Virus record (IMG/VR): IMGVR_UViG_3300010392_001242
Coordinates: 1-43,327 of that record
DNA length: 43,327 nt
Source of the DNA: a virus
Reading direction: 5' to 3' (one strand)
In this document: positions 1 to 43,036 of the stretch, one piece after another
Layout: every line of letters starts with the position of its first letter
How positions within the stretch are numbered: position 1 is the first letter of the stretch
The notes under the pieces: model-generated
Databases searched by the model: none
Told to the model about the DNA's origin: nothing
Seen by the model: the letters and a program-made list of their open reading frames with translations, nothing else
Program-made: the position numbers and the translations under genes

Positions 1-144
1 ACACCCAGGCATTACCGTACACCCTGGCATCACCGAACACCTCGGCATTACCGTACACCCTGGCATTACCGTACACCCTGGCATCACCGAACACCCAGGC
101 ATTACCGAACACCTCGGCATTACCGTACACCCAGGCATCACCGG
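1..144. repeat. eight tandem 18-bp coding repeats
   Basis: Eight in-frame copies of an 18-base unit (ACACCCAGGCATTACCGT and variants) follow each other without gaps. On the minus strand each unit encodes six residues, G-N/D-A-x-V-Y/F. Variation is confined mostly to three positions in the unit. Copy number can change by slippage or recombination without frame loss because the unit is a multiple of three. Confidence 0.95.
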
Positions 145-289
145 ACACGGCTAGATTTCCTTCTTTTTCAACCCATCCGCCAGTTTCTCCTTCTGATATA
201 GAGCCAAAAGAGATCAGCGCTTTAATCCTATGAAGAGTTTTGCCGAAGCGGATTTTTGTTTCTGAGGTAAGTTCAAATTTCTTATTCAT
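1..289 (-). CDS. GNA-repeat beta-roll phage protein, 3' end outside the window
   Basis: Read leftwards this gives a start MNKKFELTSETKIRFGKTLH, then a conserved RIKALISFG and a GGWVE block, followed by hexapeptide repeats of the form G-N/D-A-x-V-Y/F. This family is common in the early regions of phages of enteric and related bacteria and has no settled function; the repeats predict a left-handed beta-helix like hexapeptide acyltransferases. The ATG at 289-287 is preceded by GGAGTGAG. The reading frame is open to the window edge, so the length is unknown. It probably forms part of the PL transcript with the next gene, only 3 bases upstream. Confidence 0.85.
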   Translation of the reverse strand, partial: MNKKFELTSETKIRFGKTLHRIKALISFGSISEGETGGWVEKEGNLAVSGDAWVYGNAEVFGNAWVFGDARVYGNARVYGNAEVFGDARVYGNAWV

Positions 290-640: not shown

Positions 641-682
641 AGTATACCTGTATGGTATACATTGTCAATACCAGATTGGTAT
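641..682 (-). promoter_or_regulatory. leftward early promoter PL with two repressor operators (OL)
   Basis: On the minus strand TTGACA (668-663) and TATACT (646-641) are separated by 16 bp, a strong sigma70 promoter. Two inverted repeats overlay it: ATACC-TGTAT-GGTAT (644-658, flanked to give a perfect GTATACC/GGTATAC pair) and ATACC-AGATT-GGTAT (668-682). Their starts are 24 bp apart. The same half-sites and the same 24-bp step occur at the repressor/cro boundary (3652 and 3676), so these are probably the sites at which one repressor silences both early operons. Confidence 0.85.
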
Positions 683-776
683 ATATGGCAAATTTATTTC
701 TGCTTAATTAATTCAGCTCTATTGCAAAGCCTGGTTTAGCCGGTATGGTTTGGGGTTTTAAAAGGCAGGGATGAAC

Positions 777-2522: not shown

Positions 2523-2858
2523 CTATTGTGAGCATTTAAAGACCACTTTCATGTGCTCTAAAGACATTTTATGTTGGTTTTCGTTCATATTCTTACACAG
2601 ATAGCTCATGCACTGGCAGTGGATATTTAGGTCAGGTTCGCCCTCTAGTATCCAGTCTTTGGTGGTATTGAGCTGAAAGGCTAGTTCATGAATGTAGCGG
2701 TCAGGCTGGTTGACAATAATGCGCTCCAGCGTTGTTAAAGATACTCGTAATTGACCGGCTAAGTGTCGCTTGTCTTCGGTGGAAGTGTAGCCATGAATCT
2801 CTAGAAGAAATCTTATTCTTGTTTGTGCGTCCATGCCTGTACGATCAAAATCAGGCAT
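2523..2858 (-). CDS. HTH protein, CI-N-terminus-like
   Basis: Encodes 111 residues. Residues about 10-75 (RIRFLLEIHGYTSTEDKRHL onward to TKDWILEGEPD) show a helical DNA-binding pattern ending in W-I-L-x-G, as in the N-terminal domains of phage CI/Cro-type regulators. The C-terminal third holds four cysteines (two as C-Q-C) and has no peptidase S24 features. Start ATG 2858 has AAGAG eight bases upstream; ATG 2834 is the alternative. It overlaps the zinc-ribbon gene upstream and is probably cotranscribed with it. A lysogenic accessory regulator is the likely role. Confidence 0.6.
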   Translation of the reverse strand: MPDFDRTGMDAQTRIRFLLEIHGYTSTEDKRHLAGQLRVSLTTLERIIVNQPDRYIHELAFQLNTTKDWILEGEPDLNIHCQCMSYLCKNMNENQHKMSLEHMKVVFKCSQ

Positions 2859-3043
2859 TTTTTAGACTCTTTTGTTATAAGTGTTTCTTCCTTACTACTT
2901 TTGCTCTCCATTTGGGAAAAAATCCCATTTCGGTAATATTTACACCCACATTTAACGGGGGTTTCAGGCAGCCACTCACCTAAACAGGTTAGGCAAAAAG
3001 TAGTAGTTTGTAAACATTGGTTGATTTCTAACCAATTTGTCAT
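2813..3043 (-). CDS. small zinc-ribbon-like protein
   Basis: Encodes about 76 residues from ATG 3043 (MTNWLEINQCLQ). Four cysteines, arranged C-L-T-C-L-G-E-W-L-P-E-T-P-V-K-C-G-C, form a plausible zinc ribbon. The C-terminus overlaps the start of the next leftward gene by up to 46 bases, which is more than usual for translational coupling and lowers confidence. A longer start at 3082 exists, but the zinc-ribbon frame is the convincing part. Confidence 0.45.
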   Translation of the reverse strand: MTNWLEINQCLQTTTFCLTCLGEWLPETPVKCGCKYYRNGIFSQMESKSSKEETLITKESKKCLILIVQAWTHKQE

Positions 3044-3114: not shown

Positions 3115-3143
3115 TTGTTTGCTGTATGAATATACAGTATATT
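3115..3143 (+). promoter_or_regulatory. LexA-controlled promoter (SOS box)
   Basis: The 20-base site TGCTGTATGAATATACAGTA (3120-3139) matches the LexA consensus at 17 of 20 positions, including the invariant CTGT/ACAG ends. It lies between a -35-like TTGTTT (3115-3120) and a -10-like TATATT (3138-3143) exactly 17 bp apart, so bound LexA would block the promoter. Transcription would start near 3150 and run rightwards into the 62-residue ORF and then antisense through the 3' half of the repressor gene. Confidence 0.85.
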
Positions 3144-3207
3144 TTCCTTTCCAGATTGATAAAAACGAACCAGCAGGGAGAAACCGATCTGGGTGGGAGT
3201 ACAAGGG

Positions 3208-3396
3208 ATGAGCAGAAGGGTGTTTTCTGACCTTGCAGAGTCAGAAAAAAAATTAGTAGTGGAGTTTCTTAGTGCTTTTTCTTCCGCATTGCGCGAAGGA
3301 CGGTCTTTAGAGCCTCAGCATCTTCCTCAGCTATCTCCTGAAATAGCTGGTTTGCTTCTTGATCGGTGCAGTTGTGTTCGTGATCCATCCAGTTGA
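3208..3396 (+). CDS. SOS-induced small protein, candidate antirepressor
   Basis: A 62-residue ORF (start MSRRVFSDLAESEKKLVVEF) beginning about 60 bases downstream of the LexA-controlled promoter. GGGAG at 3195-3199 gives a good ribosome site for ATG 3208; a GTG at 3193 is in frame. Its 3' two-thirds overlap the end of the convergent repressor gene, so the N-terminal part is the section free of antisense constraint. In phage 186 (Tum) and Gifsy phages, LexA-controlled small proteins inactivate repressors that cannot self-cleave; position and control suggest the same job. No sequence similarity to those proteins is claimed. Confidence 0.6.
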   Translation: MSRRVFSDLAESEKKLVVEFLSAFSSALREGRSLEPQHLPQLSPEIAGLLLDRCSCVRDPSS

Positions 3397-3616
3397 CCGG
3401 GACACCAGCGCCTCTCCGATTGGCTGCGGCTTCTATGTCCCTAGCGGACTCGCTAGTAATCAGCCTAGAGTTGTCTTTTGGCCACGCAAGCCACCTTGAG
3501 ACGTTGTTTTTGTCAACGCCCATTTCCTTAGCAAGGTCAGCCTGGGAGCCAAAATACTCTTTCAGTACCAGCTTCAGGTTTTGCTGCCTGATCTCTTCTA
3601 TAGGTTTTAATTCCAT
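3269..3616 (-). CDS. phage repressor without self-cleavage domain
   Basis: From ATG 3616 it encodes 115 residues (MELKPIEEIRQQNLKLVLKE). A classical helix-turn-helix spans residues 21-41: G-S-Q-A-D-L-A-K-E-M-G-V-D-K-N-N-V-S-R-W-L. Upstream in-frame ATGs at 3658, 3673 and 3712 would place the operators inside the gene; ATG 3616 leaves all three upstream. Family repressors such as lambda CI have a C-terminal S24-type domain with Ser/Lys that RecA triggers; here the protein ends after a short acidic-to-basic helix (R-K-K-K-H), so RecA-driven autocleavage is not possible. Confidence 0.8.
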   Translation of the reverse strand: MELKPIEEIRQQNLKLVLKEYFGSQADLAKEMGVDKNNVSRWLAWPKDNSRLITSESARDIEAAANRRGAGVPVNWMDHEHNCTDQEANQLFQEIAEEDAEALKTVLRAMRKKKH

Positions 3617-3635: not shown

Positions 3636-3693
3636 ATACCGCCCCGGTAATCAGCCATATTGGTATTTGACATGAATACCATATTGGTATACT
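3636..3693. promoter_or_regulatory. right operator OR with three sites and promoter PR
   Basis: Three sites of the ATACC-N5-GGTAT type lie between repressor and cro: ATACC-GCCCC-GGTAA (3636-3650), CAGCC-ATATT-GGTAT (3652-3666) and perfect ATACC-ATATT-GGTAT (3676-3690). PR has TTGACA at 3667-3672 and TATACT at 3688-3693 with a 15-bp spacer; the strongest site covers the spacer and the edge of the -10. The two outer-to-inner steps are 16 and 24 bp. A repressor-maintenance promoter must read leftwards from here, but its boxes are not clear. Confidence 0.85.
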
Positions 3694-3701
3694 TTCTCCC
3701 T

Positions 3702-3914
3702 ATGGACTTCAAATTATATTACAGACAGCTTGATAGAGAGCAACGAAAAGCCTTTGCTAATCGCGCTCAGACTTCAACTCGATACATAGAAAACCACCTT
3801 ATGTTTCGCCGCCGCATACCAAGACCGGACATGCTCGAACGCTTGGCAGCAGCTTCGCAAGGTAAGGTTTCTTATGGGGACTTGGTGACGTTCTTTTACC
3901 AAGAGGCCGCTTAA
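3702..3914 (+). CDS. Cro-like regulator
   Basis: Encodes 70 residues (MDFKLYYRQLDREQRKAFAN), small and basic, with an HTH-like segment (FANRAQTSTRYIENHLMFRR, then R-P-D-M-L-E-R-L-A-A-A-S). Its place directly behind PR and divergent from the repressor is that of cro. The predicted PR start point is within a few bases of the ATG and no ribosome binding site precedes it, so the message is probably leaderless. ORF extension upstream to 3660 runs through the operators and is unlikely to be used. Confidence 0.75.
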   Translation: MDFKLYYRQLDREQRKAFANRAQTSTRYIENHLMFRRRIPRPDMLERLAAASQGKVSYGDLVTFFYQEAA

Positions 3915-19343: not shown

Positions 19344-19693
19344 TGGCCACCTCTACTGACTTAATCAAGCGCGCCTTGCAACGAATGAACAAGTTGCCTG
19401 CTGGGCAAAATGTTAGCTCGGAGCAAACCACAAAGATGACGAATAGCCTTAACGCAGTGCTCGAAAAAGTGATAGAGCGGAACGTGGCTGATTACGCGTC
19501 AGTGGCCGACATGCCATTAAAAGATGAAGATCCGTTCGTTACTTTGATGGCCTGGAATGCGCGCCTTGATTTTTCGGTTTCGCAGGAAAGGTTTCTGGCC
19601 TTGTCTCAGGCTCAGGAAGAAGCGTGGACGGAGCTTTATCGAAATCATACCGTTTCCAGTGATGGCGAGCCGGTAGAGGCGCAATATTTCTAA
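19343..19693 (+). CDS. P22 gp4-like head-tail adaptor
   Basis: Encodes 116 residues. The start A-T-S-T-D-L-I-K-R-A-L-Q-R-M-N-K-L and the helical layout match the adaptor family that attaches below the portal; P22 gp4 also begins with D-L-V-R-A-A-L-R-K-L-G. It is shorter than gp4 (166 residues) and has no sign of gp4's muramidase motif. The position before gp10-like supports the role in plugging DNA. Confidence 0.65.
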   Translation: MATSTDLIKRALQRMNKLPAGQNVSSEQTTKMTNSLNAVLEKVIERNVADYASVADMPLKDEDPFVTLMAWNARLDFSVSQERFLALSQAQEEAWTELYRNHTVSSDGEPVEAQYF

Positions 19694-21111
19694 TGCCGGT
19701 TCTGCCTATCCCTGTTGTCGGGGCAAGTTACAAGCACCGGTCAGAACAGTTGTCGGATCAGCGCACGCTCAACCTCTATCCAGAGTACAACGAAGAAGCG
19801 AAAGAGGTTATTTCGCTACAACCGACACCCGGCAGCGTGGCCTTTTCCGCCGCTTCCGGCGTTGATCGTGGTATCGGGATGCACAATGGTGAGCTGTATC
19901 AAGTGCTTGATGGCTCGCTGTATAGAATTTCTGGTTCTGGTGCTAGAACGTTACAAGTTGCTATTCCTGGCAGTGGGCGCTGCTTGCTTCGTTCTGAGGG
20001 TGATGTACTTGTTATCGTGTCCAACGATGGCAATGCACACACCTGGAATGGAACAACATTAAGCACAGGGACGACTAATTTTGAATCGCCAACATCAATG
20101 GCATATTTGAATGATCAATTTATCTATCCCGGCTCTGGGCAAAAGTTTTGGGTGGCTGATGCGGGTCAACCGCTATCAGTTAATATCGCTAACTTTGCTT
20201 ATGCTTACTCATCGCCTGATGACCTGATTCGCCCTTATGACTTCAATCAGCGCATTTACATGATGGGTCAGGACACTATTGAGCCCTGGTACAACTCTGG
20301 GCAGGGTAATCCGCCAGTTGATCGTATTAACGGCGGCTTAATGACGGTTGGCCTTGGTGCGAAATACTCCGTTGCCCACAATGACAACTTTCTTTACTTC
20401 ATTGGTGATGATAAGACGGCTTACCGGATTGTTGGATCAAACGCGCAGCGAATCAGTGACGTGTCGTTTGCTAACGCCCTGGAAAAGATGTCGCAAGTGT
20501 CTGATGCGATTGGGTTTTGTTACACACTCCAGAACCAGAACTTTTATCAAGTTAATTTCCCAGCAGCCAATCAAACCTGGTGTTACCACGAATCAACCGG
20601 CAAATGGTTTGAAATGTCCACGGATGACGTTCGTCACTTGGCCAACGATTATGTATTTGTTTATGGAAAGCATTTAGTTAGCGACTACCGAGATGGGTCG
20701 ATTAAGGAACTGAAGCTGGATGCTTACGACGACGCAGGCACAGCCATTAAGCGAGAGCGATCAACTGCTGTAATAGATGCCAGTTATTTCGGCAGCCTGG
20801 GGCGAGGCCGCGAAGTAGAAATGGATTGGTTTGAGTTGATTATGGAGGTCGGTGTAGGTATTGCCTCCGGCCAGGGCTCCGACCCGAAAATTATCATGCA
20901 GTATTCCGATGATCGCGGGAAAACTTGGTCAAGTGAGCTATGGACAGGTGTTGGTGATTTGCCCGTAGGCGAAATGGGGTCGTATAAAACAAGAGTCCGT
21001 TGGGGTGAGCTAGGCACCTTTTACCAGCGTTTAATCCGTATTCGTATGAGTGACCCGGTTTTATTTTCCATTCACGGGGCCTTTGCAGAAATGAGGCTTT
21101 GCATTGACTAG
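19693..21111 (+). CDS. P22 gp10-like packaged DNA stabilization protein
   Basis: Encodes 472 residues, as in P22 gp10. The start P-V-L-P-I-P-V-V-G-A-S-Y, then S-D-Q-R-T-L-N-L-Y-P-E, and repeated beta segments (P-G-S-G-R, P-D-D-L-I-R, W-Y-N-S-G) fit this tail-hub family. It closes the portal after packaging and carries the tail appendages. Start overlaps the adaptor stop by one base. Confidence 0.88.
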   Translation: MPVLPIPVVGASYKHRSEQLSDQRTLNLYPEYNEEAKEVISLQPTPGSVAFSAASGVDRGIGMHNGELYQVLDGSLYRISGSGARTLQVAIPGSGRCLLRSEGDVLVIVSNDGNAHTWNGTTLSTGTTNFESPTSMAYLNDQFIYPGSGQKFWVADAGQPLSVNIANFAYAYSSPDDLIRPYDFNQRIYMMGQDTIEPWYNSGQGNPPVDRINGGLMTVGLGAKYSVAHNDNFLYFIGDDKTAYRIVGSNAQRISDVSFANALEKMSQVSDAIGFCYTLQNQNFYQVNFPAANQTWCYHESTGKWFEMSTDDVRHLANDYVFVYGKHLVSDYRDGSIKELKLDAYDDAGTAIKRERSTAVIDASYFGSLGRGREVEMDWFELIMEVGVGIASGQGSDPKIIMQYSDDRGKTWSSELWTGVGDLPVGEMGSYKTRVRWGELGTFYQRLIRIRMSDPVLFSIHGAFAEMRLCID

Positions 21112-31202: not shown

Positions 31203-31290
31203 AGCCCGGGTGGTGGAATTGGTAGACACAGGAGACTTAAAATCTCCCGACTTAACGGTCGTGCCGGTTCAAGTCCGGCCCCGGGCACCA
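31203..31290 (+). tRNA. tRNA-Leu (anticodon UAA)
   Basis: Complete cloverleaf: acceptor GCCCGGG/CCCGGGC, anticodon stem GGAGA/TCTCC with loop CTTAAAA (anticodon TAA at 31237-31239), long variable arm CGACTTAACGGTCG, T arm GCCGG-TTCAAGT-CCGGC, and an encoded CCA (31288-31290). It is the likely target site of the integrase encoded just downstream. Confidence 0.97.
31263..31290. other. candidate attachment site (3' end of tRNA-Leu)
   Basis: Tyrosine integrases encoded next to a tRNA 3' end usually recombine within its T arm and acceptor. The T arm to CCA stretch here (GCCGGTTCAAGTCCGGCCCC onward) should recur as a direct repeat at the far end of the element, outside this window. No second copy is seen inside the window. 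Confidence 0.5.
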
Positions 31291-31420
31291 TTAACATTTT
31301 TGCCGTTTCCGGCTAAATCTAGCTTTATCTTATTATTCAATGACTTAGCATTGATTCGCTGAGGCTGTGGTTTACTATTGTTAGCCATAACCAGCCGTAT
31401 TTCGCGCGATTTTACGAACA

Positions 31421-31444
31421 AATTGCGAATGAAATTACGAATGA
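31421..31444. repeat. tandem 12-bp repeat upstream of integrase gene
   Basis: AATTGCGAATGA and AATTACGAATGA lie head to tail, and TTTTACGAACAA immediately before is a third, weaker copy. The spacing (12 bp) and place just upstream of int suggest arm-type integrase sites or an operator for int. Confidence 0.55.
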
Positions 31445-31456
31445 GGTGAATGCATC

Positions 31457-32431
31457 ATGGCTACGATACGTAAGCTGAAGAGCAAACGGTTTGTCGCAGA
31501 AGTCAGAAAATTCGGTCACTATAAATCTAAAACCTTTGATACCAAAATACAGGCTATGGCATGGGCTGCCGAGTCCGAGCAGACTCTATCGCCTGATACT
31601 CTGGTTCAGGGCAAAACACTTGGTGATTGCTTCACCCGCTACCGTGATGAAGTATCCCCGTCCAAGAAAAGCTACCGCACCGAACATAACCGCCTTAATA
31701 AATTCCTGCGGGAAAAGCTCGCCCTCATGCCCTTGGGTGAAGTGAAACAGACCCATTTCGATAGATGGATAGAAACCTCTTTAACACGCATTAAAAGCAG
31801 CAGTGTTAACCGTGATCTGAATCTACTCTCCAGTGTGTTTGAACAGGCTAAACGCTGGCGCTGGACGGATAGCAACCCGATACGGGGTATCAGGCGACCC
31901 AAGAACCCGCATCCCAGAGATAGGCGTATTTCTGAAAAGGAAATCGAGCGTATATTGGACTCCCTTGGCTTTGACGGAGAAACCGTCACAGAGCGCCGTC
32001 ATGTCATCGCCGTGGCGTTTCTGTTTGCGATTGAGACTGCGATGCGCCAAGGCGAAATCTGGAATCTTGAGTGGGATGATGTGTTTCTGGATAAATGCTT
32101 TGTCCGGCTACATGAAACCAAAAATGGAACCAAGCGTGATGTCGCCTTATCTAGTGAAGCTATACGTCTGCTTAACCTGTTGGATAACCGCAAGCATTCC
32201 AGAGTGTTTGCGACGAATCAGGCTTCTTCAGGAACCATCTTTAGACGTTGCCTGATGCTAGCTGGAATTAAAGGGCTGACCTTTCACGATACGAGACATG
32301 AAGCACTCACACGCCTTGCCCGTAAACTCGATGTGCTAGACCTTGCCAGAATGGTTGGCCATCGAGATCCACGATCGTTGATGATTTATTACAATGCTAC
32401 GGCAGAAGAAATTGCTGCACGGTTAGGGTGA
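31457..32431 (+). CDS. tyrosine recombinase (integrase)
   Basis: Encodes 324 residues. N-terminal arm-binding domain (1-45), core-binding SAM-like domain (50-135), catalytic domain with R197 (A-M-R-Q-G-E-I), H277-D-T-R280, H302 (G-H-R-D-P) and nucleophile Y311 or Y312 (M-I-Y-Y). All catalytic residues are present. GAGGTGAATGCATC precedes ATG 31457. The site next to tRNA-Leu indicates that it inserts its element at the tRNA 3' end. Confidence 0.93.
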   Translation: MATIRKLKSKRFVAEVRKFGHYKSKTFDTKIQAMAWAAESEQTLSPDTLVQGKTLGDCFTRYRDEVSPSKKSYRTEHNRLNKFLREKLALMPLGEVKQTHFDRWIETSLTRIKSSSVNRDLNLLSSVFEQAKRWRWTDSNPIRGIRRPKNPHPRDRRISEKEIERILDSLGFDGETVTERRHVIAVAFLFAIETAMRQGEIWNLEWDDVFLDKCFVRLHETKNGTKRDVALSSEAIRLLNLLDNRKHSRVFATNQASSGTIFRRCLMLAGIKGLTFHDTRHEALTRLARKLDVLDLARMVGHRDPRSLMIYYNATAEEIAARLG

Positions 32432-32454
32432 TTTATTCGCAGGAAGGATAGCTA

Positions 32455-32485
32455 GAAGGAAGAGGCTTCCAAAGCCACTTCCTTC
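32455..32485. terminator. long hairpin between convergent genes
   Basis: GAAGGAAG (32455-32462) pairs with CTTCCTTC (32478-32485) and, inside an A-A mismatch, GGCTT pairs with AAGCC around CCA. Symmetric, so it can end both the integrase and the AraC-type transcripts, although T-runs are weak. Confidence 0.65.
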
Positions 32486-32531
32486 AGTATGCTTTTCTAA
32501 ATAACTCCAATACTCAAGTATAATTGTTTCT

Positions 32532-33401
32532 CTATTTCAAAGGGACATAGATGTCTGTAATTAGTTCACATTCATCAACTTCATGAATGAAATTGATGTA
32601 GTGGAAGAAGCAAGGGTAGTCACGAATTTCTTCATTGTTTTCTGGAAGCCATTCACGGTAAACATAGTAGATACTGTTATCCAGATTATTGTGGCTTCCT
32701 TTATGCCGTATCACTGCACAACGCCCACCAGGAATCTCGCCAGTTTTTACACCATACCGATTTTCCGGCACATCACTTTCTATAGATCCACATACGTCCC
32801 AGCGAAACTTTTCAGGGCTTGTGGTTTTTGGATCGCTGTAGGGTATTCCGAAGGTTTTGCTTGTTTTAACCGGTGATAAACCCGTTTCTTTTCGCCACTG
32901 AATAAATTTACCGGCAGTTTCTAATACTTTTTCTGGTGAACCAAGATGCTCAATAAGAGCAACTTTTGTTGTTTCAAATTCTACAATATCTACTTTCATT
33001 TTTTTAACTCCATGAGGCTGAATGTGAAAATCAAACCGTGTGTGCCATTGTGGCCATTGTGGTTCTGCCCTGAATTCAGAAGGAGACTGGTCAAAGGTTC
33101 TCTTAAATGCTCTGGAAAATGCCTCAGGACTATCAAATCCTGCTTCCAGTGCAATTTCGATAATGCGCTGTTCCTTTTCAAAAGCTAGACGAAACGATGC
33201 TCTTTTCAACCTTGCCAGCTGAATAAACTTCGTAACACTCATGCCTGTATAAGCAGTAAATACTCTATGAAAATGATATTTCGAGAATGCAGCCACATTA
33301 CTCATTACCTCAAGTGTAAGCGTCTCATTGAGATTCTGATTAATATATTCACAAACACGTGATACACGCTCATCATAAGGACTTACTAACTTATTCTTCA
33401 T
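32532..33401 (-). CDS. AraC-family regulator with GyrI-like domain
   Basis: Encodes 289 residues. Two AraC helix-turn-helix motifs lie in residues 12-110: S-N-V-A-A-F-S-K-Y-H-F-H-R-V-F, and I-A-L-E-A-G-F-D-S-P-E-A-F-S-R-A-F-K-R. The C-terminal half (from about 138, K-V-D-I-V-E-F-E, to D-I-Y-V-P-L) is a GyrI/SbmC-like ligand-binding domain. Rob/SoxS-related regulators of this build sense small molecules and control efflux or stress genes. Cargo, since it is not part of transfer functions. Confidence 0.9.
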   Translation of the reverse strand: MKNKLVSPYDERVSRVCEYINQNLNETLTLEVMSNVAAFSKYHFHRVFTAYTGMSVTKFIQLARLKRASFRLAFEKEQRIIEIALEAGFDSPEAFSRAFKRTFDQSPSEFRAEPQWPQWHTRFDFHIQPHGVKKMKVDIVEFETTKVALIEHLGSPEKVLETAGKFIQWRKETGLSPVKTSKTFGIPYSDPKTTSPEKFRWDVCGSIESDVPENRYGVKTGEIPGGRCAVIRHKGSHNNLDNSIYYVYREWLPENNEEIRDYPCFFHYINFIHEVDECELITDIYVPLK

Positions 33402-33601
33402 TTTGTTCCTTCTTGTCTCAGGTCTGTTTGCATTATGCTACCGTATGTTAGAGCTGTCCTGATTGAGATTGCTAAGATTTCTATAACGATGTACAAAGCT
33501 TGTAAAGGTAGTTCGATTATTGAGTTTACTCATATAGCGATGACAAGTGAGTATAAAAAGTTAGTATTTGATAGGTTGTTTTCTCCGCAAGACTGTTTCC
33601 C

Positions 33602-33775
33602 TTATTCTGAAGCAACCCCCAAGTTTTGCGTAGGAATAAGGGAAATTTGAGGACAGGTTTGCATGGCTACCGATTCTTTATTTTTCGTTTGTGAAAGTAA
33701 TTGATGGATTATGTGTGATGGAGAAGCGCACCCCGTTACCAACATTAAAATCGTTAGTGCGATAAACAGCTTCAT
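33602..33775 (-). CDS. small lipoprotein
   Basis: A 57-residue ORF starting MKLFIALTILMLVTGCASPS. Hydrophobic core and lipobox V-T-G-C (Cys16), with A at +2. Its ATG overlaps the stop of the next gene upstream (ATGA), which indicates an operon. Small lipoproteins of mobile elements are often entry-exclusion or mating-pore factors, but identity is not known. The rightward ORF opposite (33435-33650) is rejected. Confidence 0.65.
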   Translation of the reverse strand: MKLFIALTILMLVTGCASPSHIIHQLLSQTKNKESVAMQTCPQISLIPTQNLGVASE

Positions 33776-34269
33776 TGAAATGCACTCATTTCAATGACTT
33801 TGCATTCCGGTTTAGCGGGGAAATCACACCACAAAACATATGCGCTTAGTTCACCGATAGTCAGGTGCTTTTCTTCCCTCCAATACATCGGAAAAAAGCA
33901 CCACCCACAGTCGTGGGTTTTAGTATTTTTATCCATATTCCGTAAGTGCGTTTTTATTAAATTGAAATATCGGGTAGCTCGTGTTTTGTAATAGTCCTGA
34001 TTGGTACATTTGAAATAATAGAGTTTGCCTATCGGCATAGTGCGTTTAATTTTAGTATCACTATTACACGCCATATTGGTTATAGCTTTAAAGGAGCTTT
34101 TATAGAGCGGTGCTTCCTGTCTTGGTGAGCCAAAGTAACTGCCACCCATACTTGGCGCAAGACAGAAATTCCGGGAACGGTCAAAGACGGTTTTACCTGT
34201 AAATTCGTCATACAGTTTTTCAAGCGTATCCGCATCATAAAGGGCATGACCAGCTGATGGTAACGGCAT
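33772..34269 (-). CDS. cysteine-containing hypothetical protein
   Basis: Encodes 165 residues, GAGGT upstream. Contains C-L-A-P-S-M-G-G-S-Y-F-G-S-P-R-Q-E and seven cysteines (C36, C68, C88, C120, C123 and two more near the end), suggesting disulphides or metal binding. Residues 55-110 are helical and basic. No recognised family. It starts a short leftward operon with the lipoprotein, controlled by the operator at 34314-34329. Confidence 0.55.
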   Translation of the reverse strand: MPLPSAGHALYDADTLEKLYDEFTGKTVFDRSRNFCLAPSMGGSYFGSPRQEAPLYKSSFKAITNMACNSDTKIKRTMPIGKLYYFKCTNQDYYKTRATRYFNLIKTHLRNMDKNTKTHDCGWCFFPMYWREEKHLTIGELSAYVLWCDFPAKPECKVIEMSAFQ

Positions 34270-34296
34270 GGGATATTTACCTCTTTGCAGAGAGAA

Positions 34297-34337
34297 TTCA
34301 TATGCGGTATTATACGCACTATATTGCGTAATTGCAT
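34297..34337. promoter_or_regulatory. divergent promoters sharing an ACGC-N8-GCGT operator
   Basis: Rightward promoter: TTCATA (34297-34302), 17 bp, TATATT (34320-34325). Leftward promoter: TATAAT (34314-34309) with a weaker ATGCAA at 34337-34332, 17 bp. The 16-base palindrome ACGCACTATATTGCGT (34314-34329) overlaps both. A second copy with the same ends is at 38204-38219, so one regulator of the element probably controls both places. Confidence 0.7.
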
Positions 34338-34351
34338 AGTGTGCAGCACCG

Positions 34352-34675
34352 ATGAAACGGATACGAATCAGCGAAGAACCTATACAGCTAGATCTGTTTG
34401 CAGATAATGTGGTGCCGTTTTTCTATAGCTTTCCCGTGAATTGTACTGATCGGGAGTGGATAGATTGGCAGGAATCATTACAGCGGGAACGTGAGCGTAA
34501 CGCACAGGCACATGAACGCTGGAAAGCTTATATGTATTCCATGCGCTGTATTATCAGCCAGTTCGGATATCGAGCTTTCAAGAAAAACGGGCAGATCATC
34601 GTTGAGCGTATTCCCTATAGAGGTGAGGAATTACGTTCGGAAATGAGAGCGAGAAATATGCGGGTAATTCAATGA
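34352..34675 (+). CDS. orphan basic protein
   Basis: Encodes 107 residues (MKRIRISEEPIQLDLFADNV), highly charged, with E-R-E-R-N-A-Q-A-H-E-R-W-K-A-Y helix in the middle and a basic C-terminus. It begins the rightward operon behind the divergent promoter. Start ATG 34352 matches GATGAAACGG with no strong ribosome site. Function unknown. Confidence 0.55.
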   Translation: MKRIRISEEPIQLDLFADNVVPFFYSFPVNCTDREWIDWQESLQRERERNAQAHERWKAYMYSMRCIISQFGYRAFKKNGQIIVERIPYRGEELRSEMRARNMRVIQ

Positions 34676-34899
34676 ATGACAAAGAATTTGAAGCATTCCA
34701 TAGACGCTGCCGTGCACCTTTTACAGATGGCTGGGGAAACTCGACACTACCTAAGCCACAAAAAGCGGATAAACGCTTCTGTGAGCTTCTTTCGGAAATT
34801 ACAGCTAGTGTACCGGAGTCGCATAAGCAGGATTTTATCCGCTTACAGAGAAAAATATTCGGACTCAAATTAATATCTACTGAGGATAGCGCCTCATGA
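34672..34899 (+). CDS. mini-protein paralogue 1
   Basis: Encodes 75 residues with an ATGA overlap to the previous gene. The C-terminal half carries P-E-S-H-K-Q-D-F-I-R-L, then G-L-K-L-I, a motif repeated without gaps in the proteins at 36429 and 36601. The N-terminus differs (R-R-C-R-A-P-F). Helical fold expected. No family recognised. Confidence 0.6.
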   Translation: MNDKEFEAFHRRCRAPFTDGWGNSTLPKPQKADKRFCELLSEITASVPESHKQDFIRLQRKIFGLKLISTEDSAS

Positions 34900-35387
34900 G
34901 AACGTTACTAAAATTAATCTGCTGGAGTGGCCTTGCTGCCAGTATTTACTATCTCGGATTTACGTGGTGGACAATACCAATATTTGGATTCTGTTTAATA
35001 TCGGTGAAGCTCTATTTAGGAATTAGCGACCTTGCAAAAGAAAATATCACCATATCCTCATTCACTGTGGCAGGAATTTACCTAGCAGGAATAGCGATCT
35101 ATGTTTTTAGCGGTGAAGATTATCTAAGCCGTACAATGGATTCTATCTACACAGCTAAATATTATCTAAATCCCATTATGTTACTCATGGTGGTGCTGGT
35201 TTTAGGGGCTGATTCATCTGGAAGTTACGGCGGCAGTAGAGGTAGGGGCAACCAATATGTAAATGATGAAGTACCTGTATCTTACGATAACGCCTATGGG
35301 CAGAAACGGGACATAATCGATCAGCTCAGAGTAGAAAATCTGGGTGATATTGCTTCCGGTGCTAAAAATCCTGATGATCCGTGGTAG
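34896..35387 (+). CDS. membrane protein, hypothetical
   Basis: Encodes 163 residues, overlapping the previous gene (ATGA). Four hydrophobic segments (5-25, 27-44, 54-72, 89-105) then a soluble C-terminus with S-G-S-Y-G-G-S-R-G-R-G and N-L-G-D-I-A-S-G-A-K-N-P-D-D-P-W. The Gly-rich linker and polar tail would be cytoplasmic. Function unknown. Confidence 0.6.
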   Translation: MRTLLKLICWSGLAASIYYLGFTWWTIPIFGFCLISVKLYLGISDLAKENITISSFTVAGIYLAGIAIYVFSGEDYLSRTMDSIYTAKYYLNPIMLLMVVLVLGADSSGSYGGSRGRGNQYVNDEVPVSYDNAYGQKRDIIDQLRVENLGDIASGAKNPDDPW

Positions 35388-35461
35388 TAGATATACTTCT
35401 CATTAACAATTAATTAACCCTTTTCTGATAGTGTTAATATTAATGGGAATTTATTAGTGCG

Positions 35462-35821
35462 ATGACAGTAGAAAAAAAGAAAACAGAGCTAGCAGAATTA
35501 GGCATTACACCTGAACAGCTAAAGGAAGCCGATGAACAGGCTGAATTTATTGAATGCGCTACTGCGCATGCTCCTGATGGAAAGCAATTCTGGTATTACC
35601 TTTCGATTAAGCCGAGTAAATATGCAGAGTATAAGCAGCGTCATCGAGACGGTGGCAAGCTGAATCCGAAAGAGTTCGGTGAAGTCCTTGCCTGCGGATG
35701 GGGAGCTAACCCGCCGGATGATATAAGAGCAGAAATGAAGGAGGAGTTTGGTTGTGATCCTTCCTTTGAGAAAAACTTAAAAACAGCCATTGAAAAAGAA
35801 TTACGTAATAACTCACAGTAG
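35462..35821 (+). CDS. orphan soluble protein
   Basis: Encodes 119 residues. Contains Y-A-E-Y-K-Q-R-H-R-D-G-G-K-L-N-P-K-E-F-G-E-V-L-A-C-G-W-G and a C-terminal F-G-C-D-P-S-F-E. The upstream 74 bases are AT-rich with TTAATATTAA at 35428-ish, which may be a promoter. No clear ribosome site. Unknown family. Confidence 0.5.
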   Translation: MTVEKKKTELAELGITPEQLKEADEQAEFIECATAHAPDGKQFWYYLSIKPSKYAEYKQRHRDGGKLNPKEFGEVLACGWGANPPDDIRAEMKEEFGCDPSFEKNLKTAIEKELRNNSQ

Positions 35822-35825
35822 GTGA

Positions 35826-36374
35826 ATGGACGAGCAACAAAAGCAAAGGAATGATAAGTTAGTATTGGATGTCATGGAGTTTGCCGACGTCCTTCAGGGG
35901 AAAGATGAATCACAACTCGAATCACTAAAAGCGGATTTGACCGGTGATCTCAAAGACAAGAACAAGGAATTTGAGTGGCTAGAAAAACACCGTAAATCCG
36001 AGATTACTGCACCACTTATGAATATGGGAATAGGTGCTAACCTAGCCGGTCTTGTTATGATGGCAACCTTTCCCGAGGGAGTCGAAGCAGTAGCTACTTT
36101 GGCTGAGGCGACAGCTCTGGCTACTTCTGCGGTTTTAATGGCTGTTGCTGGAAAGGGAGCTATGGATTTCAGCCAGACCAATACTGGTTATCGAATGGAT
36201 CAGAAAGAAGTAACCAGTGAAATTGAAGGAACAGAAGCAAAAATGGCTCTACTTGATAAAGCGCTTGATGGTGAAGAAATTGACCTTTCCGCTATCAAGG
36301 ATGTCACAGGTGAAGATTTAGCTCCGACAGTAGATAGGCTGTCTCATGAAAGAAATAACGGTCAAACCCGATAA
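35826..36374 (+). CDS. helical protein with two hydrophobic segments
   Basis: Encodes 182 residues. N-terminal 60 residues are charged coiled coil; residues about 64-85 (M-G-I-G-A-N-L-A-G-L-V-M-M-A) and 96-116 (A-L-A-T-S-A-V-L-M-A-V-A-G-K-G-A-M) are hydrophobic with small residues, a hairpin that could enter membranes; the C-terminus is acidic. It resembles pore-forming or immunity-type architectures but no identity is proposed. Five bases after the previous gene. Confidence 0.5.
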   Translation: MDEQQKQRNDKLVLDVMEFADVLQGKDESQLESLKADLTGDLKDKNKEFEWLEKHRKSEITAPLMNMGIGANLAGLVMMATFPEGVEAVATLAEATALATSAVLMAVAGKGAMDFSQTNTGYRMDQKEVTSEIEGTEAKMALLDKALDGEEIDLSAIKDVTGEDLAPTVDRLSHERNNGQTR

Positions 36375-36428
36375 TTCTTCGATTCATTACTAGCGCAACC
36401 CCGTTACGTATTCCAACAGTGATTCTTG

Positions 36429-36620
36429 ATGAAAAATAAAGACCTTCCACCGCATTTGCGCCGATGTAGCCCTTCACAAATGGGAACATTATTAGCCCGT
36501 TTTGAATATTTACAGGATACGATGAAACAGATACCGGAGAATCATAAACAGACCTTCATCAAAATGTACTTCCGTGAGCAGGGTTTGAGACTTATCAACC
36601 ATGACATTCTTTCCCGTTAA
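36429..36620 (+). CDS. mini-protein paralogue 2
   Basis: Encodes 63 residues (MKNKDLPPHLRRCSPSQMGT). P-E-N-H-K-Q-T-F-I-K-M, then G-L-R-L-I, aligns without gaps to the gene at 34672 and to the next gene. Ends H-D-I-L-S-R. Its end overlaps the start of the next paralogue by 20 bases, so the pair looks like a local duplication. Confidence 0.6.
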   Translation: MKNKDLPPHLRRCSPSQMGTLLARFEYLQDTMKQIPENHKQTFIKMYFREQGLRLINHDILSR

Positions 36621-36810
36621 CTCATCTTCTGAATCTCTTAAAGAAAAACAGCTAGCTCTTGCACTTGCGGTAGAGCTGGATTTGCAGCGAAGCGTTAAAG
36701 CAACTTTGGCGCAGCTGCATGAAAATGACAGGCAATCCTTCATCCAGATGTATTATCAATCATACGGCCTATCACTCCTTCATTGTGAATTGTTAGACCT
36801 ATCCCGTTAA
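36601..36810 (+). CDS. mini-protein paralogue 3
   Basis: Encodes 69 residues (MTFFPVNSSSESLKEKQLAL). H-E-N-D-R-Q-S-F-I-Q-M-Y-Y, then G-L-S-L-L and terminal D-L-S-R align with paralogues 1 and 2; the proline is changed and the N-terminus is different. Together the three define an orphan family in this element. Function unknown. Confidence 0.6.
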   Translation: MTFFPVNSSSESLKEKQLALALAVELDLQRSVKATLAQLHENDRQSFIQMYYQSYGLSLLHCELLDLSR

Positions 36811-36815
36811 ACGCT

Positions 36816-37013
36816 CTATGTAACGGAGCACCCCCAAGCAACGCACAGAGACCAAAGGCTATCAAGCCACGCATTTTCCCAAACCATACCCATTATTGCA
36901 TTGTCATGCCGATATATTTGCTTGTACGCACGTAGATTCTCAGTCTGCAATGATTTAAGTATTGCCGTCATTGCCAGTCCTTTTTGGTAGTCAAGATCGC
37001 TGGTAAATCCCAC
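36816..37013 (-). CDS. doubtful small ORF
   Basis: Encodes 65 residues from ATG 37013 (or 51 from 36971): a helical start, L-K-S-L-Q-T-E-N-L-R-A-Y, and a Trp-rich end with two cysteines. It is the only reading frame of note between the paralogues and the next genes and ends 5 bases from the convergent gene. No ribosome site is clear; it may be chance. Confidence 0.25.
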   Translation of the reverse strand: MGFTSDLDYQKGLAMTAILKSLQTENLRAYKQIYRHDNAIMGMVWENAWLDSLWSLCVAWGCSVT

Positions 37014-37051
37014 CTTTATTCGTGAACGCTACCGCCACGGCGGCGCTCATA

Positions 37052-37128
37052 AAACCGCTTTACCCGTTAACCTCAACTAAAACAGCTACGCTGCAAGTTT
37101 CGCTAAACAGTCCCCCACAAAGCGGTTT
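37052..37128. repeat. 10-bp inverted repeat in a gene-free stretch
   Basis: AAACCGCTTT (37052-37061) and AAAGCGGTTT (37119-37128) are perfect inverted copies 57 bases apart. The surrounding 190 bases hold no supported gene and include a second palindromic run (CCGCCACGGCGG near 37033). It may form part of a small RNA, an origin or a regulatory site. Confidence 0.5.
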
Positions 37129-37206
37129 GACGATCTCCTTATTCCGAGTCGGTTAATGCTTGTCACAAGGCGGAATTCACCGTCTTGAAAACAAAAGGTA
37201 AAGATT

Positions 37207-37407
37207 ATGACTAACCAACAAACAGATAAATCGTCAAACAGACCTACCCATACAGTACGCATTAAAGACTGGAATACCGATCAGGACAACTATCTGAATA
37301 TCGGTGTCGCATGGCAGAAAGACAACGGCACAATCACCGTAAAACTCTCCGGCAAGCAGCTCATTGACGATGCCATATTCCTTAATCCTATCAAGGACAA
37401 ATCATAA
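37207..37407 (+). CDS. small plasmid-type protein
   Basis: Encodes 66 residues (MTNQQTDKSSNRPTHTVRIK), then I-G-V-A-W-Q-K-D-N-G-T-I-T-V-K-L. The T-H-x-V-R...W...I-G-V-A-W...G pattern is like that of small DUF736/ssDNA-related proteins carried by plasmids and ICEs near relaxase genes. AAAGGTAAAG precedes the start. Exact role unknown. Confidence 0.65.
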   Translation: MTNQQTDKSSNRPTHTVRIKDWNTDQDNYLNIGVAWQKDNGTITVKLSGKQLIDDAIFLNPIKDKS

Positions 37408-37421
37408 CCATAACAAATTCA

Positions 37422-37440
37422 GGGGCGGCTTTGCCGTCCC
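37422..37440 (+). terminator. hairpin before DUF3768 gene
   Basis: GGGGCGGC (37422-37429) pairs with GCCGTCCC (37433-37440) around TTT, with one G-T pair. No T-run follows (TATAAAGGAG), so it may act as an attenuator or mRNA stabiliser. Confidence 0.5.
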
Positions 37441-37457
37441 TATAAAGGAGATTTTCA

Positions 37458-37814
37458 ATGAACGATAAAACCTTACTTATTCAAAAACAGAATGATATTT
37501 TCAGAAAGCAAAGCTATAAAGCCATAGAAGATGATCACACCATTCGGGGGAAGTGCGTTAAAACTCATGGAGTTGGCTGTTTAGAGTACGAAGTACAAAT
37601 AACTATTTTAGAATTGGTTCATAATTTTAATAATTTCACAGAAGATAACGATCCTCATGGTGAGCATGATTTTGGTTCTTTTACTTGCAAAGGAAACAAA
37701 ATATTCTGGAAGATCGACTATTACGATGTGAATTACGAATATGGTTCGGAAGATCCAAGTGATCTTTCAAAAACCCGCCGTGTACTCACAATCATGCTGG
37801 CAGAGGAATATTAA
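37458..37814 (+). CDS. DUF3768 family protein
   Basis: Encodes 118 residues. I-Q-K-Q-N-D-I-F-R-K near the start, then N-D-P-H-G-E-H-D-F-G-S-F, W-K-I-D-Y-Y-D, and T-R-R-V-L-T-I-M-L-A-E-E-Y at the end are the conserved blocks of DUF3768, a family mostly on plasmids and ICEs of Proteobacteria. Function unsettled. AAAGGAG upstream. Confidence 0.88.
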   Translation: MNDKTLLIQKQNDIFRKQSYKAIEDDHTIRGKCVKTHGVGCLEYEVQITILELVHNFNNFTEDNDPHGEHDFGSFTCKGNKIFWKIDYYDVNYEYGSEDPSDLSKTRRVLTIMLAEEY

Positions 37815-37820
37815 TATTTT

Positions 37821-37853
37821 AGCTATCTCATTGCATTGTGCAGTGAGATAGCT
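37821..37853. terminator. bidirectional terminator
   Basis: A 15-bp stem with one G-T pair, AGCTATCTCATTGCA (37821-37835) with its partner at 37839-37853, loop TTG, flanked by T-runs on both strands (ATTTT). Ends the DUF3768 transcript and the leftward 37852-38166 gene, whose stop lies in the stem. Confidence 0.85.
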
Positions 37854-38166
37854 ATTTTAACCACGAGAAGCAGCTTGGATATTTACTCACTGGTCTACGT
37901 TTAGTTATGGTGTGATCTAATTGTCCGGCTTGTGGAATATCAACTTTTTCAAGCCAATATTTTCTCCAATTTTCATCTATGTATACAGCGCATGTATAGT
38001 CACTTTTGAATTGACTATGAAAATGGCTCAATGCGTCTTCAATACTGTTCCGCTCGAATGCTCGCATAAACCCTGAATCACTGTAATAACGTTGCGTTGA
38101 ATGGCTATTATTTGAATGTAGAACTTCAAATCGTGGTGTGCTTAGACTTCGATAAATATTCTCCAT
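37852..38166 (-). CDS. hypothetical protein under the element operator
   Basis: Encodes 104 residues. N-terminus M-E-N-I-Y-R-S-L-S-T-P-R-F-E-V-L, then Y-Y-S-D-S-G-F-M-R-A-F-E and E-D-A-L-S-H-F-H-S-Q-F-K, suggesting an alpha/beta protein. GGGAGGATGCT gives a good ribosome site. The operator palindrome at 38204-38219 lies 38 bases before its start, so it is probably repressed by the element's regulator. Confidence 0.6.
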   Translation of the reverse strand: MENIYRSLSTPRFEVLHSNNSHSTQRYYSDSGFMRAFERNSIEDALSHFHSQFKSDYTCAVYIDENWRKYWLEKVDIPQAGQLDHTITKRRPVSKYPSCFSWLK

Positions 38167-38203
38167 AGCATCCTCCCATTACTCATGTTCGTCTGGACTG
38201 ATA

Positions 38204-38219
38204 ACGCAATATATAGCGT
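38204..38219. promoter_or_regulatory. second ACGC-N8-GCGT operator
   Basis: ACGCAATATATAGCGT is a 16-base palindrome with the same ends and spacing as 34314-34329. A TATATT on the minus strand (38213-38208) within it could be the -10 of the 37852-38166 gene. Confidence 0.65.
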
Positions 38220-38249
38220 ATCATAGTATTGCGCCGGATATACAACTGG

Positions 38250-38516
38250 CTACTTTGAAGCTACGCCGTTAATTGGCTCACGGTTGCGTGATGTCCAGTG
38301 TTTTACCTCTTTTGCATACCAGCGTCTTCCGCCGATTCCGTTATCCGTAGGGATACGAATTGCCCTTGGAAAGTCCTTTCGACAAATGATGCGGGATTGC
38401 ACCGAGGATCGGCTTAATCGCACATAATGAGCAATGTCATCCACATTCCATAATTCTGCACTATCAGAACGTAATGATTTCAGCTCGTTTAGAATTTCCA
38501 GTAGTAATTTTTCCAC
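38250..38516 (-). CDS. AlpA-like HTH protein, excisionase or regulator
   Basis: Encodes 88 residues. After a coiled N-terminus (E-K-L-L-L-E-I-L-N-E-L-K), L-W-N-V-D-D-I-A-H-Y-V-R-L-S-R-S-S-V is a winged MerR/AlpA-like helix-turn-helix, followed by F-P-R-A-I-R-I and G-G-R-R-W-Y-A-K-E-V-K-H-W, the AlpA pattern. AlpA-like proteins act as excisionases or regulators of integrase genes. It is last in the relaxase operon and is a candidate for the operator-binding protein. Confidence 0.75.
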   Translation of the reverse strand: MEKLLLEILNELKSLRSDSAELWNVDDIAHYVRLSRSSVQSRIICRKDFPRAIRIPTDNGIGGRRWYAKEVKHWTSRNREPINGVASK

Positions 38517-38549
38517 AAGGTTTCACCTTGGCGAATATAGCAGTCAGCA

Positions 38550-38753
38550 CTATTTCTTAGTTTCAACGGTTACAGAAAGGCCGTATTTATCTGCCATTTT
38601 TTTCATTTCCATCTTGGCTTTTCTGACTTCCGCCTTATGGCGCCTACTTAATTCGTTGTCACAGGATTTGCGTAGCTTGGTAATAGCATCATCGGTCATG
38701 GATTCAAAATTAACGTCTGGATTAGCGTTCAGGTTTTGTGGGAAGTTCATCAA
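38550..38753 (-). CDS. H-NS N-terminus-like small protein
   Basis: Encodes 67 residues. L-R-K-S-C-D-N-E-L-S-R-R-H-K-A-E-V-R-K-A is a charged helix, then M-A-D-K-Y-G-L-S-V, which resembles the linker of H-NS family proteins. The protein ends there, without the AT-hook-like DNA-binding domain. Truncated H-NS relatives (H-NST) on islands antagonise host H-NS silencing. Similarity is local and uncertain. Overlaps the end of the upstream gene by 32 bases. Confidence 0.4.
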   Translation of the reverse strand: MMNFPQNLNANPDVNFESMTDDAITKLRKSCDNELSRRHKAEVRKAKMEMKKMADKYGLSVTVETKK

Positions 38754-39177
38754 TATTTACCTCGCTGTTAGGCTTTAGGGTGATGTAATCAATATAAGGG
38801 GAGTCTTCATCTTCGGTTTCAAGATAATCGGCTATGAATATTTCTTCGACCTTATGACGGCATATGTTGGTAAAGAGTGTTCCCAGATTTCTGCCGTTTA
38901 TAAGTAGGGTTTCATCTGCGAATTTAAGAATGATCCAGCCTTTAACAAACCTGAATCGTCTTCGTAACATGTAGGGACAGTTATTGGCTTCACCCTTGAA
39001 ATGAAAACCTATAGCTACCGCTGAATGCTCTGTTGAAAGTGAGAAGCATTTTTCTTGAGGGCGGTGTATTTCATTATCATTTTCACCTGCTTTCTTTATT
39101 GGCGGCGTCCGTGGGTTAGCCAGCGAACTTAACTGTTCGCTATAGGACGTGCTTTTATCTTTAGGTGCTGTACTCAT
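38722..39177 (-). CDS. relaxase operon hypothetical protein
   Basis: Encodes 151 residues, ATGA overlap with the relaxase stop. N-terminus is polar and disordered (STAPKDKSTSYSEQLSSLAN), then a beta-rich region R-R-R-F-R-F-V-K-G-W-I-I-L-K-F-A-D-E-T-L-L. No recognised family. Coupling to the relaxase suggests a transfer-related role. Confidence 0.65.
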   Translation of the reverse strand: MSTAPKDKSTSYSEQLSSLANPRTPPIKKAGENDNEIHRPQEKCFSLSTEHSAVAIGFHFKGEANNCPYMLRRRFRFVKGWIILKFADETLLINGRNLGTLFTNICRHKVEEIFIADYLETEDEDSPYIDYITLKPNSEVNIDELPTKPER

Positions 39178-42056: not shown

Positions 42057-42085
42057 ATAGTGTAATTCCCCTTAGTTACAACCGG

Positions 42086-42171
42086 AGGTATTTGTAGCGT
42101 GTTCGACCTAGCCGCACTACAAATACCTTAAAAATAGAATCAGACATCTCTCCTAAGCACGATAGCTTAGG
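42086..42171. other. candidate origin of transfer (oriT)
   Basis: Immediately upstream of the relaxase gene. A perfect 12-bp inverted repeat AGGTATTTGTAG / CTACAAATACCT (42086-42097 and 42117-42128) with a 19-base loop is followed by CCTAAGC-ACGATA-GCTTAGG (42152-42171), a second perfect hairpin. MobF relaxases nick next to such hairpins, and oriT usually lies beside the relaxase gene. The nick base itself cannot be named. Confidence 0.6.
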
Positions 42172-42224
42172 TATATTTACAACACTCAATGCCAGTGTAC
42201 TCACGGACTTAAGGCTAATACTGC

Positions 42225-42617: not shown

Positions 42618-42620
42618 GGT

Positions 42621-42974: not shown

Positions 42975-42995
42975 ATTTATTTCCTCAAATGAATG

Positions 42996-43036
42996 GATTG
43001 CACCTGAAAATCCACTTGTGATTTACAGGTGCAATC
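42996..43036. repeat. 11-bp inverted repeat with 19-base loop
   Basis: GATTGCACCTG (42996-43006) and CAGGTGCAATC (43026-43036) are perfect inverted copies separated by 19 bases, the same spacing as in the oriT candidate. It lies in the leader of the 42621-42974 gene and may be an RNA hairpin/terminator for the upstream gene or a protein site. Confidence 0.7.

What the first reader, a model, noticed from the sequence alone, without database searches (positions are those of the whole stretch)
3115..3616. Prophage induction likely uses a LexA-controlled antirepressor, since the repressor cannot self-cleave
The sequence shows a 115-residue HTH repressor with no S24 domain, and a near-consensus LexA box set between -35 and -10 boxes 17 bp apart, driving a convergent 62-residue ORF. 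Known parallels are phage 186 Tum and the Gifsy antirepressors. The same transcript is antisense to the repressor 3' half, so protein inactivation and antisense effects may act together. No similarity to known antirepressors is visible, so the small protein may be a new family.
Basis: partly seen in the sequence, partly recalled or inferred. Interest (0 to 1): 0.85.

Follow-up and report, generated by a model that had tools for sequence, protein, structure and literature searches.

The report
SOS-controlled antirepressor candidate overlapping phage repressor
A prophage-like virus carries a master repressor that lacks the domain needed to cut itself, and next to it a tiny gene behind a textbook DNA-damage (LexA) switch; the nearest studied relative of this repressor is switched off by exactly such a small protein, so the tiny gene is probably the trigger that wakes the virus, though its sequence and its position overlapping the repressor gene are unlike the known case.

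Summary
A perfect CTGT-N8-ACAG LexA box (3122-3137) lies between -35 TTGTTT and -10 TATATT, 17 bp apart, ahead of a 62-codon ORF (P0001, 3208-3396) with a good ribosome-binding site. The ORF is convergent to, and overlaps by 128 nt, a 115-residue HTH repressor (P0002) without an S24 domain; none occurs in the window. New here: P0002 and its divergent Cro partner P0003 are homologues of the epsilon15/phiV10/SPC32H immunity pair. SPC32H Rep is a non-cleaved repressor inactivated by Ant, a small LexA-controlled protein, a closer parallel than 186 Tum or Gifsy. P0001 is not an Ant homologue. It is an orphan, found in only one other record, with identical DNA, and it sits inside the immunity region; ant lies 12-14 kb from rep in the relatives. 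P0001's first helix resembles the Ant-binding tetramerisation tail of Rep and P0002's own tail, in one register, and those two coding segments form an imperfect palindrome. This hints at a SinI-like mimic, but a profile HMM does not confirm it. Best reading: a new variant of a known kind. Antirepressor activity, LexA binding and any antisense effect are untested.

The parts
3115..3120 (+). -35 hexamer TTGTTT (weak)
   Evidence: read directly
3122..3137 (.). LexA (SOS) box CTGTATGAATATACAG, palindromic, between -35 and -10
   Evidence: 14 of 16 bases identical to the LexA box of SPC32H ant (CTGTATAAACATACAG)
3138..3143 (+). -10 hexamer TATATT, 17 bp from the -35
   Evidence: read directly
3195..3199 (+). 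Shine-Dalgarno-like GGGAG, 8 nt before the ATG
   Evidence: read directly
3208..3396 (+). 62-codon ORF P0001, candidate LexA-controlled antirepressor; orphan sequence, predicted helices at residues 11-29 and 44-54
3223..3282 (+). codons 6-25 of P0001 (FSDLAESEKKLVVEFLSAFS), segment resembling the C-terminal tetramerisation (CAD/TetDloop) helix of Rep-family repressors
   Evidence: for; against (profile HMM)
3284..3343 (-). codons 92-111 of the repressor tail, in the same register as the P0001 segment; the two segments form an imperfect palindrome around 3283 (26 of 60)
3269..3616 (-). 115-aa HTH repressor P0002, DNA-binding domain homologous to phiV10/SPC32H Rep, no S24 domain, short helical tail
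3269..3396 (.). 128-nt tail-to-tail overlap of P0001 and the repressor gene
   Evidence: coordinates
3675..3691 (.). putative repressor/Cro operator AATACCATATTGGTATA (OR side); a further partial copy CCATATTGGTAT at 3655-3666
667..683 (.). putative left operator AATACCAGATTGGTATA (OL side), with a weaker copy at 643-659
3702..3914 (+). Cro-like protein P0003, divergent from the repressor, homologous to SPC32H_042 and phiV10p41
   Evidence: tblastn 3e-9

Best explanation
This is the SOS-induction switch of a temperate phage of the epsilon15/SPC32H immunity type. P0002 holds lysogeny by binding the operators near 3655-3691 and 640-683 (repeats shown, binding inferred). It has no S24 domain, so RecA cannot trigger its self-cleavage (domain absence shown, consequence inferred). 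LexA sits on the box inside the P0001 promoter and keeps it off (site shown, binding inferred). On DNA damage LexA is cleaved and P0001 is made. P0001 binds P0002, most likely at its C-terminal oligomerisation tail, which its first helix resembles, breaks the DNA-binding assembly and frees the lytic promoters (inferred from SPC32H Rep-Ant and from SinR-SinI). Convergent transcription through the last third of the repressor gene may help by lowering new repressor synthesis (possible, no evidence).
For: LexA box and promoter geometry far above chance. Homology of the repressor to phiV10 Rep (tblastn 4e-7) and SPC32H Rep (none of 2000 shuffles reaches the score); the best fold matches of the P0002 model are the Rep chains of the Rep-Ant crystal structure 5d50, probability 1.00. 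Homology of the divergent Cro gene (3e-9), so the whole immunity pair is of this type. SPC32H ant has a LexA box sharing 14 of 16 bases. In SPC32H, Rep and Ant interact through Rep's C-terminal CAD domain (PMC9986798) and Ant breaks the Rep tetramer (PMC9638917). No S24 domain. The window has no Ant homologue, so another effector is needed. P0001 is predicted as well-formed helices from a single sequence (mean pLDDT 77) and its first 60 nt are gene-like. P0001 residues 6-25 score above all but 3 of 11,756 pieces of other ORFs against the Rep CAD matrix, and at 0.5% against P0002's own tail, in the same register. In that register the DNA is palindromic at 26 of 60, a level reached by 0.16% of positions.
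Against: No diverged homologue of P0001 was found, so selection on the protein cannot be shown. A profile HMM of Rep CADs does not find P0001, and the resemblance was first noticed by eye, so the tail-mimic part is only a lead. P0002's own tail is only weakly CAD-like (7.6 against 21.4 for P0001). Fold searches with P0001 found nothing significant. The P0002 model has low confidence outside the HTH (mean pLDDT 58). The host is unknown, so its LexA specificity is assumed from the box type and from terminase relatives in gammaproteobacterial genomes.
Confidence: 0.6

Rival explanations
1. The LexA-controlled transcript works only as RNA: damage-induced antisense transcription through the repressor gene blocks repressor synthesis, and the ORF is incidental.
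For: 128 nt of the ORF and anything downstream are antisense to the repressor; the overlapping part has no coding signal beyond what an open antisense frame would show.
Against: Repressor already present would persist until diluted, which is slow for induction (general knowledge). The ORF has a good ribosome-binding site, gene-like 5' codons and a well-predicted helical structure. The RNA is not unusually structured (z +1.47) and matches no Rfam family.
Confidence: 0.13
2. P0001 is an SOS-induced phage protein with another job (for example acting on host division, recombination or polymerase), and prophage induction uses another route.
For: Many LexA-controlled phage genes are not antirepressors; a survey of 80 phage loci with a LexA box fused to a -10 shows varied downstream genes. 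P0001 has no recognised domain.
Against: The studied member of this repressor family uses a LexA-controlled antirepressor, and the window has neither Ant nor any other strong LexA site. Position inside the immunity region fits a regulatory role.
Confidence: 0.17
3. The LexA box serves the leftward genes (76-codon ORF 2813-3043 and HTH-like P0004, 2523-2858) rather than P0001, or both divergent units.
For: The box lies between divergent reading frames, and P0004 has a coding signal (frame score +0.39).
Against: The -35/-10 pair around the box points right; no comparable promoter was seen on the minus strand (by eye).
Confidence: 0.05
4. The arrangement is a decayed or non-functional remnant in a defective prophage.
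For: All copies seen are from metagenomes and activity has never been observed; the record is linear and may be a fragment.
Against: All switch parts are intact, structural genes have full-length ORFs, and the same sequence was assembled in other records.
Confidence: 0.05

Closest known systems
Salmonella phage SPC32H Rep-Ant (epsilon15/phiV10 group, Uetakevirus)
   Same: Homologous repressor DNA-binding domain and homologous divergent Cro gene; repressor without S24; small protein behind a LexA box with 14 of 16 identical bases.
   Different: Ant (86 aa) and P0001 (62 aa) are not detectably related; ant lies far from rep (about 14 kb in SPC32H) while P0001 overlaps the repressor gene; P0002 lacks Rep's middle dimerisation domain and a clear CAD.
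Gifsy-1/2/3 GfoA, GfhA, GftA antirepressors (PMC3121763)
   Same: Uncleaved repressor, small LexA-controlled antirepressor that removes it from DNA.
   Different: [quoted passage not shown] no sequence match was found, though Gifsy genomes were not specifically searched.
Coliphage 186 Tum and N15 AntC
   Same: LexA-controlled antirepressors (named in PMC3121763).
   Different: Tum is 146 aa with a DinI-like half; no tblastn match of P0001 in the phage collection.
TF-smORF modules of linear plasmid-phages (PMC10432266)
   Same: Orphan small protein inactivates cI without proteolysis, next to regulatory genes.
   Different: Those smORFs are driven by a phage transcription factor independently of SOS; here the switch is a LexA box.
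Bacillus SinR-SinI
   Same: SinR/SinI (1b0n) is the fourth fold match of P0002 (E 0.28); SinI is a small antagonist built like SinR's own oligomerisation hairpin (own knowledge), the proposed mode here.
   Different: Not a phage system, not LexA-controlled; no sequence relationship tested or claimed.

Membership tests
SPC32H-type Rep repressors | Homologous N-terminal DNA-binding domain | tested here: met
   (4e-7 to phiV10), (5d50 probability 1.00)
SPC32H-type Rep repressors | Divergent Cro partner of the same family | tested here: met
SPC32H-type Rep repressors | No S24 self-cleavage domain | tested here: met
SPC32H-type Rep repressors | Middle dimerisation domain and C-terminal CAD/TetDloop | tested here: not met
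   P0002 is 115 aa against 198; the middle domain is absent and the tail is only weakly CAD-like
SPC32H Ant antirepressors | Sequence homology to Ant | tested here: not met
   (shuffle p 0.29)
SPC32H Ant antirepressors | LexA box at the promoter | tested here: met
SPC32H Ant antirepressors | Binds and dissociates the cognate repressor | not testable with these tools
   needs biochemistry
LexA-controlled antirepressors in general (Tum, AntC, GfoA) | LexA-controlled expression | tested here: inconclusive
   site and promoter geometry present; binding and induction not measured
LexA-controlled antirepressors in general (Tum, AntC, GfoA) | Inactivates a non-cleaved repressor | not testable with these tools
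   target is non-cleavable by domain content; activity unmeasured
TF-smORF modules | Small gene activated by a neighbouring, divergently transcribed phage transcription factor, SOS-independent | tested here: inconclusive
   a LexA box lies in the promoter, which argues against it; HTH-like P0004 lies divergent from P0001 behind a 76-codon ORF and its role was not tested

The most novel reading that the evidence does not exclude
P0001 is an antirepressor that arose from its own target: an inverted duplication of the repressor's 3' end gave a LexA-controlled gene on the opposite strand whose first helix copies the repressor's oligomerisation tail and poisons its assembly, while its transcription also runs antisense through the repressor gene.
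Probability: 0.2. Interest if true: 0.72.

Novelty: new variant of a known kind. Interest (0 to 1): 0.5.

Why it matters
Repressors without a self-cleavage domain leave open how a prophage senses damage. This locus extends the SPC32H Rep-Ant logic beyond the enterobacterial epsilon15 group, with an unrelated effector placed inside the immunity region. It suggests that S24-less repressors of this family recruit different LexA-controlled antagonists, and that such genes, being tiny and overlapping, are easily missed by annotation. If the tail-mimic reading is right, it would show how such an antagonist is born. The test is cheap: two small genes and a reporter in laboratory E. coli.

Tried and rejected
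Direct homologues of P0001: none in phages, genome contigs or 369 gammaproteobacterial genomes, only chance-level matches in plasmids. The only copy is in IMGVR_UViG_3300005589_000127, whose DNA is 100% identical over the stretches compared; a third record matches another part of the phage at 99.98%. Homology of P0001 to Ant: rejected. Fold matches of P0001: none significant. Profile HMM of Rep CADs against P0001: negative, so the resemblance from the averaged matrix stays a lead. Same layout in relatives: about 150 epsilon15-like immunity loci (highly redundant) show no LexA box at the repressor gene, except L133, where a deletion seems to have brought a truncated ant near the immunity genes. 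Structured antisense RNA: no support. Literature for a convergent, antisense or tail-mimicking phage antirepressor: no paper in the held library combined the terms. The two primary SPC32H papers were asked for under guessed identifiers and not obtained.

Full report
OBSERVATION. The region was read directly. The -35 TTGTTT is at 3115-3120, the LexA box CTGTATGAATATACAG at 3122-3137 and the -10 TATATT at 3138-3143, with a 17-bp spacer. Within three mismatches of the 20-base consensus this is the only site in 43 kb, and no shuffle has one; it is also the only full CTGT-N8-ACAG. The -35 is weak (3 of 6), and the generic promoter scan did not list the pair. The ORF P0001 (3208-3396, 62 aa) has GGGAG ending 8 nt before its ATG. 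The repressor P0002 (3269-3616, minus strand, 115 aa) has an HTH of the YdaS/P22-Cro type and no S24 domain. A window-wide search for S24 was negative while 13 of 14 control genomes rang. The overlap is 128 nt, the last 37% of the repressor gene.

IS THE ORF A GENE? A frame-aware composition model trained on 24 clear genes of the window gives the non-overlapping first 60 nt of P0001 a score typical of true frames (43rd percentile); only 1.1% of wrong-frame pieces reach it. The overlapping part is not informative, since open antisense frames in this register score similarly. A single-sequence structure prediction gives helices 11-29 and 44-54 with mean pLDDT 77, good for a lone 62-residue sequence. 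No diverged relative was found in any collection searched. The one other IMG/VR record that holds P0001 is the same DNA (100% over the compared stretches), so it shows independent assembly but gives no conservation test.

WHAT THE REPRESSOR IS. tblastn of P0002 in phages hits only the phiV10/Tyrion/TL-2011b kind (4e-7 and 2e-7). SPC32H Rep aligns over the DNA-binding domain with a score no shuffle reaches, although a sequence search of PDB gives only E=0.08 for it. The fold search with the P0002 model puts the Rep chains of 5d50, the Rep-Ant complex, in the first three places (E 0.017-0.07, probability 1.00) and SinR-SinI (1b0n) fourth; the model itself is weak outside the HTH. The divergent Cro gene P0003 is homologous to SPC32H_042 (3e-9). 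The immunity pair is therefore of the epsilon15/SPC32H type. Related DNA-binding domains (L026, L028) and Cro partners (Moraxella phage Mcat9, Psychrobacter phage pOW20-A) occur with S24 repressors, so within this wider group the cleavable domain is sometimes present and sometimes absent. P0002 is shorter than Rep: it lacks the middle domain and has only a short helical tail.

THE KNOWN PARALLEL. In SPC32H, Rep is not cleaved and is inactivated by Ant, whose gene is under LexA control (own knowledge of Kim & Ryu 2013 and Kim et al. 2016; those papers were not read here). Held papers state that Rep's C-terminal CAD makes the tetramer and binds Ant (PMC9986798) and that Ant breaks the Rep tetramer (PMC9638917). 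The annotated SPC32H ant gene (19676-19936) lies beside CTGTATAAACATACAG, sharing 14 of 16 bases with the window's box. Ant homologues occur throughout the epsilon15 group. Where both genes were placed they lie far apart: about 14 kb in SPC32H, about 11-12 kb in phiV10, about 13 kb in Tyrion. The window has no Ant homologue. A LexA-controlled antagonist is thus expected for P0002, and P0001 is the only candidate at a strong LexA site.

HOW IT MAY ACT. P0001 residues 6-25 (FSDLAESEKKLVVEFLSAFS) resemble the Rep CAD (YAALPQEEKNKITSFINFVF). With an averaged-BLOSUM matrix of 22 CADs, 3 of 11,756 pieces of other ORFs score as high; against the tail of P0002 itself the fraction is 0.5%; with both combined, none. 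The best register is the same in both comparisons. In that register, set before the DNA was tested, the two coding segments (3223-3282 plus, 3284-3343 minus) form an imperfect palindrome, 26 of 60; 0.16% of positions in the window do as well. Cautions: I noticed the resemblance by eye before testing; protein similarity and palindromic DNA are not independent; pairwise shuffles against whole proteins give only p = 0.02 (Rep) and 0.13 (P0002); a profile HMM of the CADs does not detect P0001; and the tail of P0002 is itself only weakly CAD-like. I rate it a lead for a SinI-like or Ant-like attack on the oligomerisation tail, perhaps with origin by inverted duplication.

ALTERNATIVES. Antisense action alone is possible from the layout, but the RNA is not unusually structured, matches no Rfam family, and would leave existing repressor in place. 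P0001 might have another SOS role; the survey of LexA-promoter loci shows that such genes are varied. The leftward genes could share the box, but the promoter points right.

NOVELTY. The principle (LexA-controlled antirepressor for a non-cleavable repressor) is known: 186 Tum, N15 AntC, Gifsy and SPC32H. What differs here is an unrelated effector, its place inside the immunity region overlapping the repressor tail-to-tail, and a shortened Rep. About 150 redundant epsilon15-like immunity loci show no LexA box at the repressor apart from one deletion remnant. I therefore call it a new variant of a known kind.

Noticed in passing
L133:2560-2690 (IMGVR_UViG_2778261502_000005): An epsilon15-like prophage remnant in which a LexA box and a truncated ant (about 25 codons) lie about 1.3 kb from the immunity genes, apparently by deletion.
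   Followed up: partly
window 2813-3043 (-) and 2523-2858 (-): Two overlapping small ORFs downstream of the repressor: a 76-codon Cys-rich ORF (CLTC...CGC, zinc-ribbon-like) and a 111-aa HTH-like protein; no Pfam or NCBIfam match above cut-off for the latter, none at all in NCBIfam for the former.
   Followed up: partly
window 1-160: 18-bp repeats (ACACCCTGGCATTACCGT type) that, on the minus strand, seem to read as a repeat protein cut by the window's left end.
   Followed up: no
window 31204-43327: A tRNA-Leu (31204-31290) followed by a tyrosine integrase and, to its right, an AraC-type gene and a TrwC/TraI relaxase (39174-42056, Pfam 1e-65): possibly a mobilisable element or host flank beside the phage.
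   Followed up: partly
L196, L202, L230, L255, L272 around the LexA box: A recurring family of 72-75-aa proteins (MSNKNQLFQ-ALE-IIDGVA...) directly behind a LexA box in several phage contigs, mostly facing a convergent gene of about 340 aa; a possible LexA-controlled regulator family of another phage group.
   Followed up: no
L031 and L032 (Moraxella phage Mcat9, Psychrobacter phage pOW20-A): Homologues of the Cro protein P0003 paired with S24 repressors, so this Cro family is shared between cleavable and non-cleavable immunity systems.
   Followed up: yes
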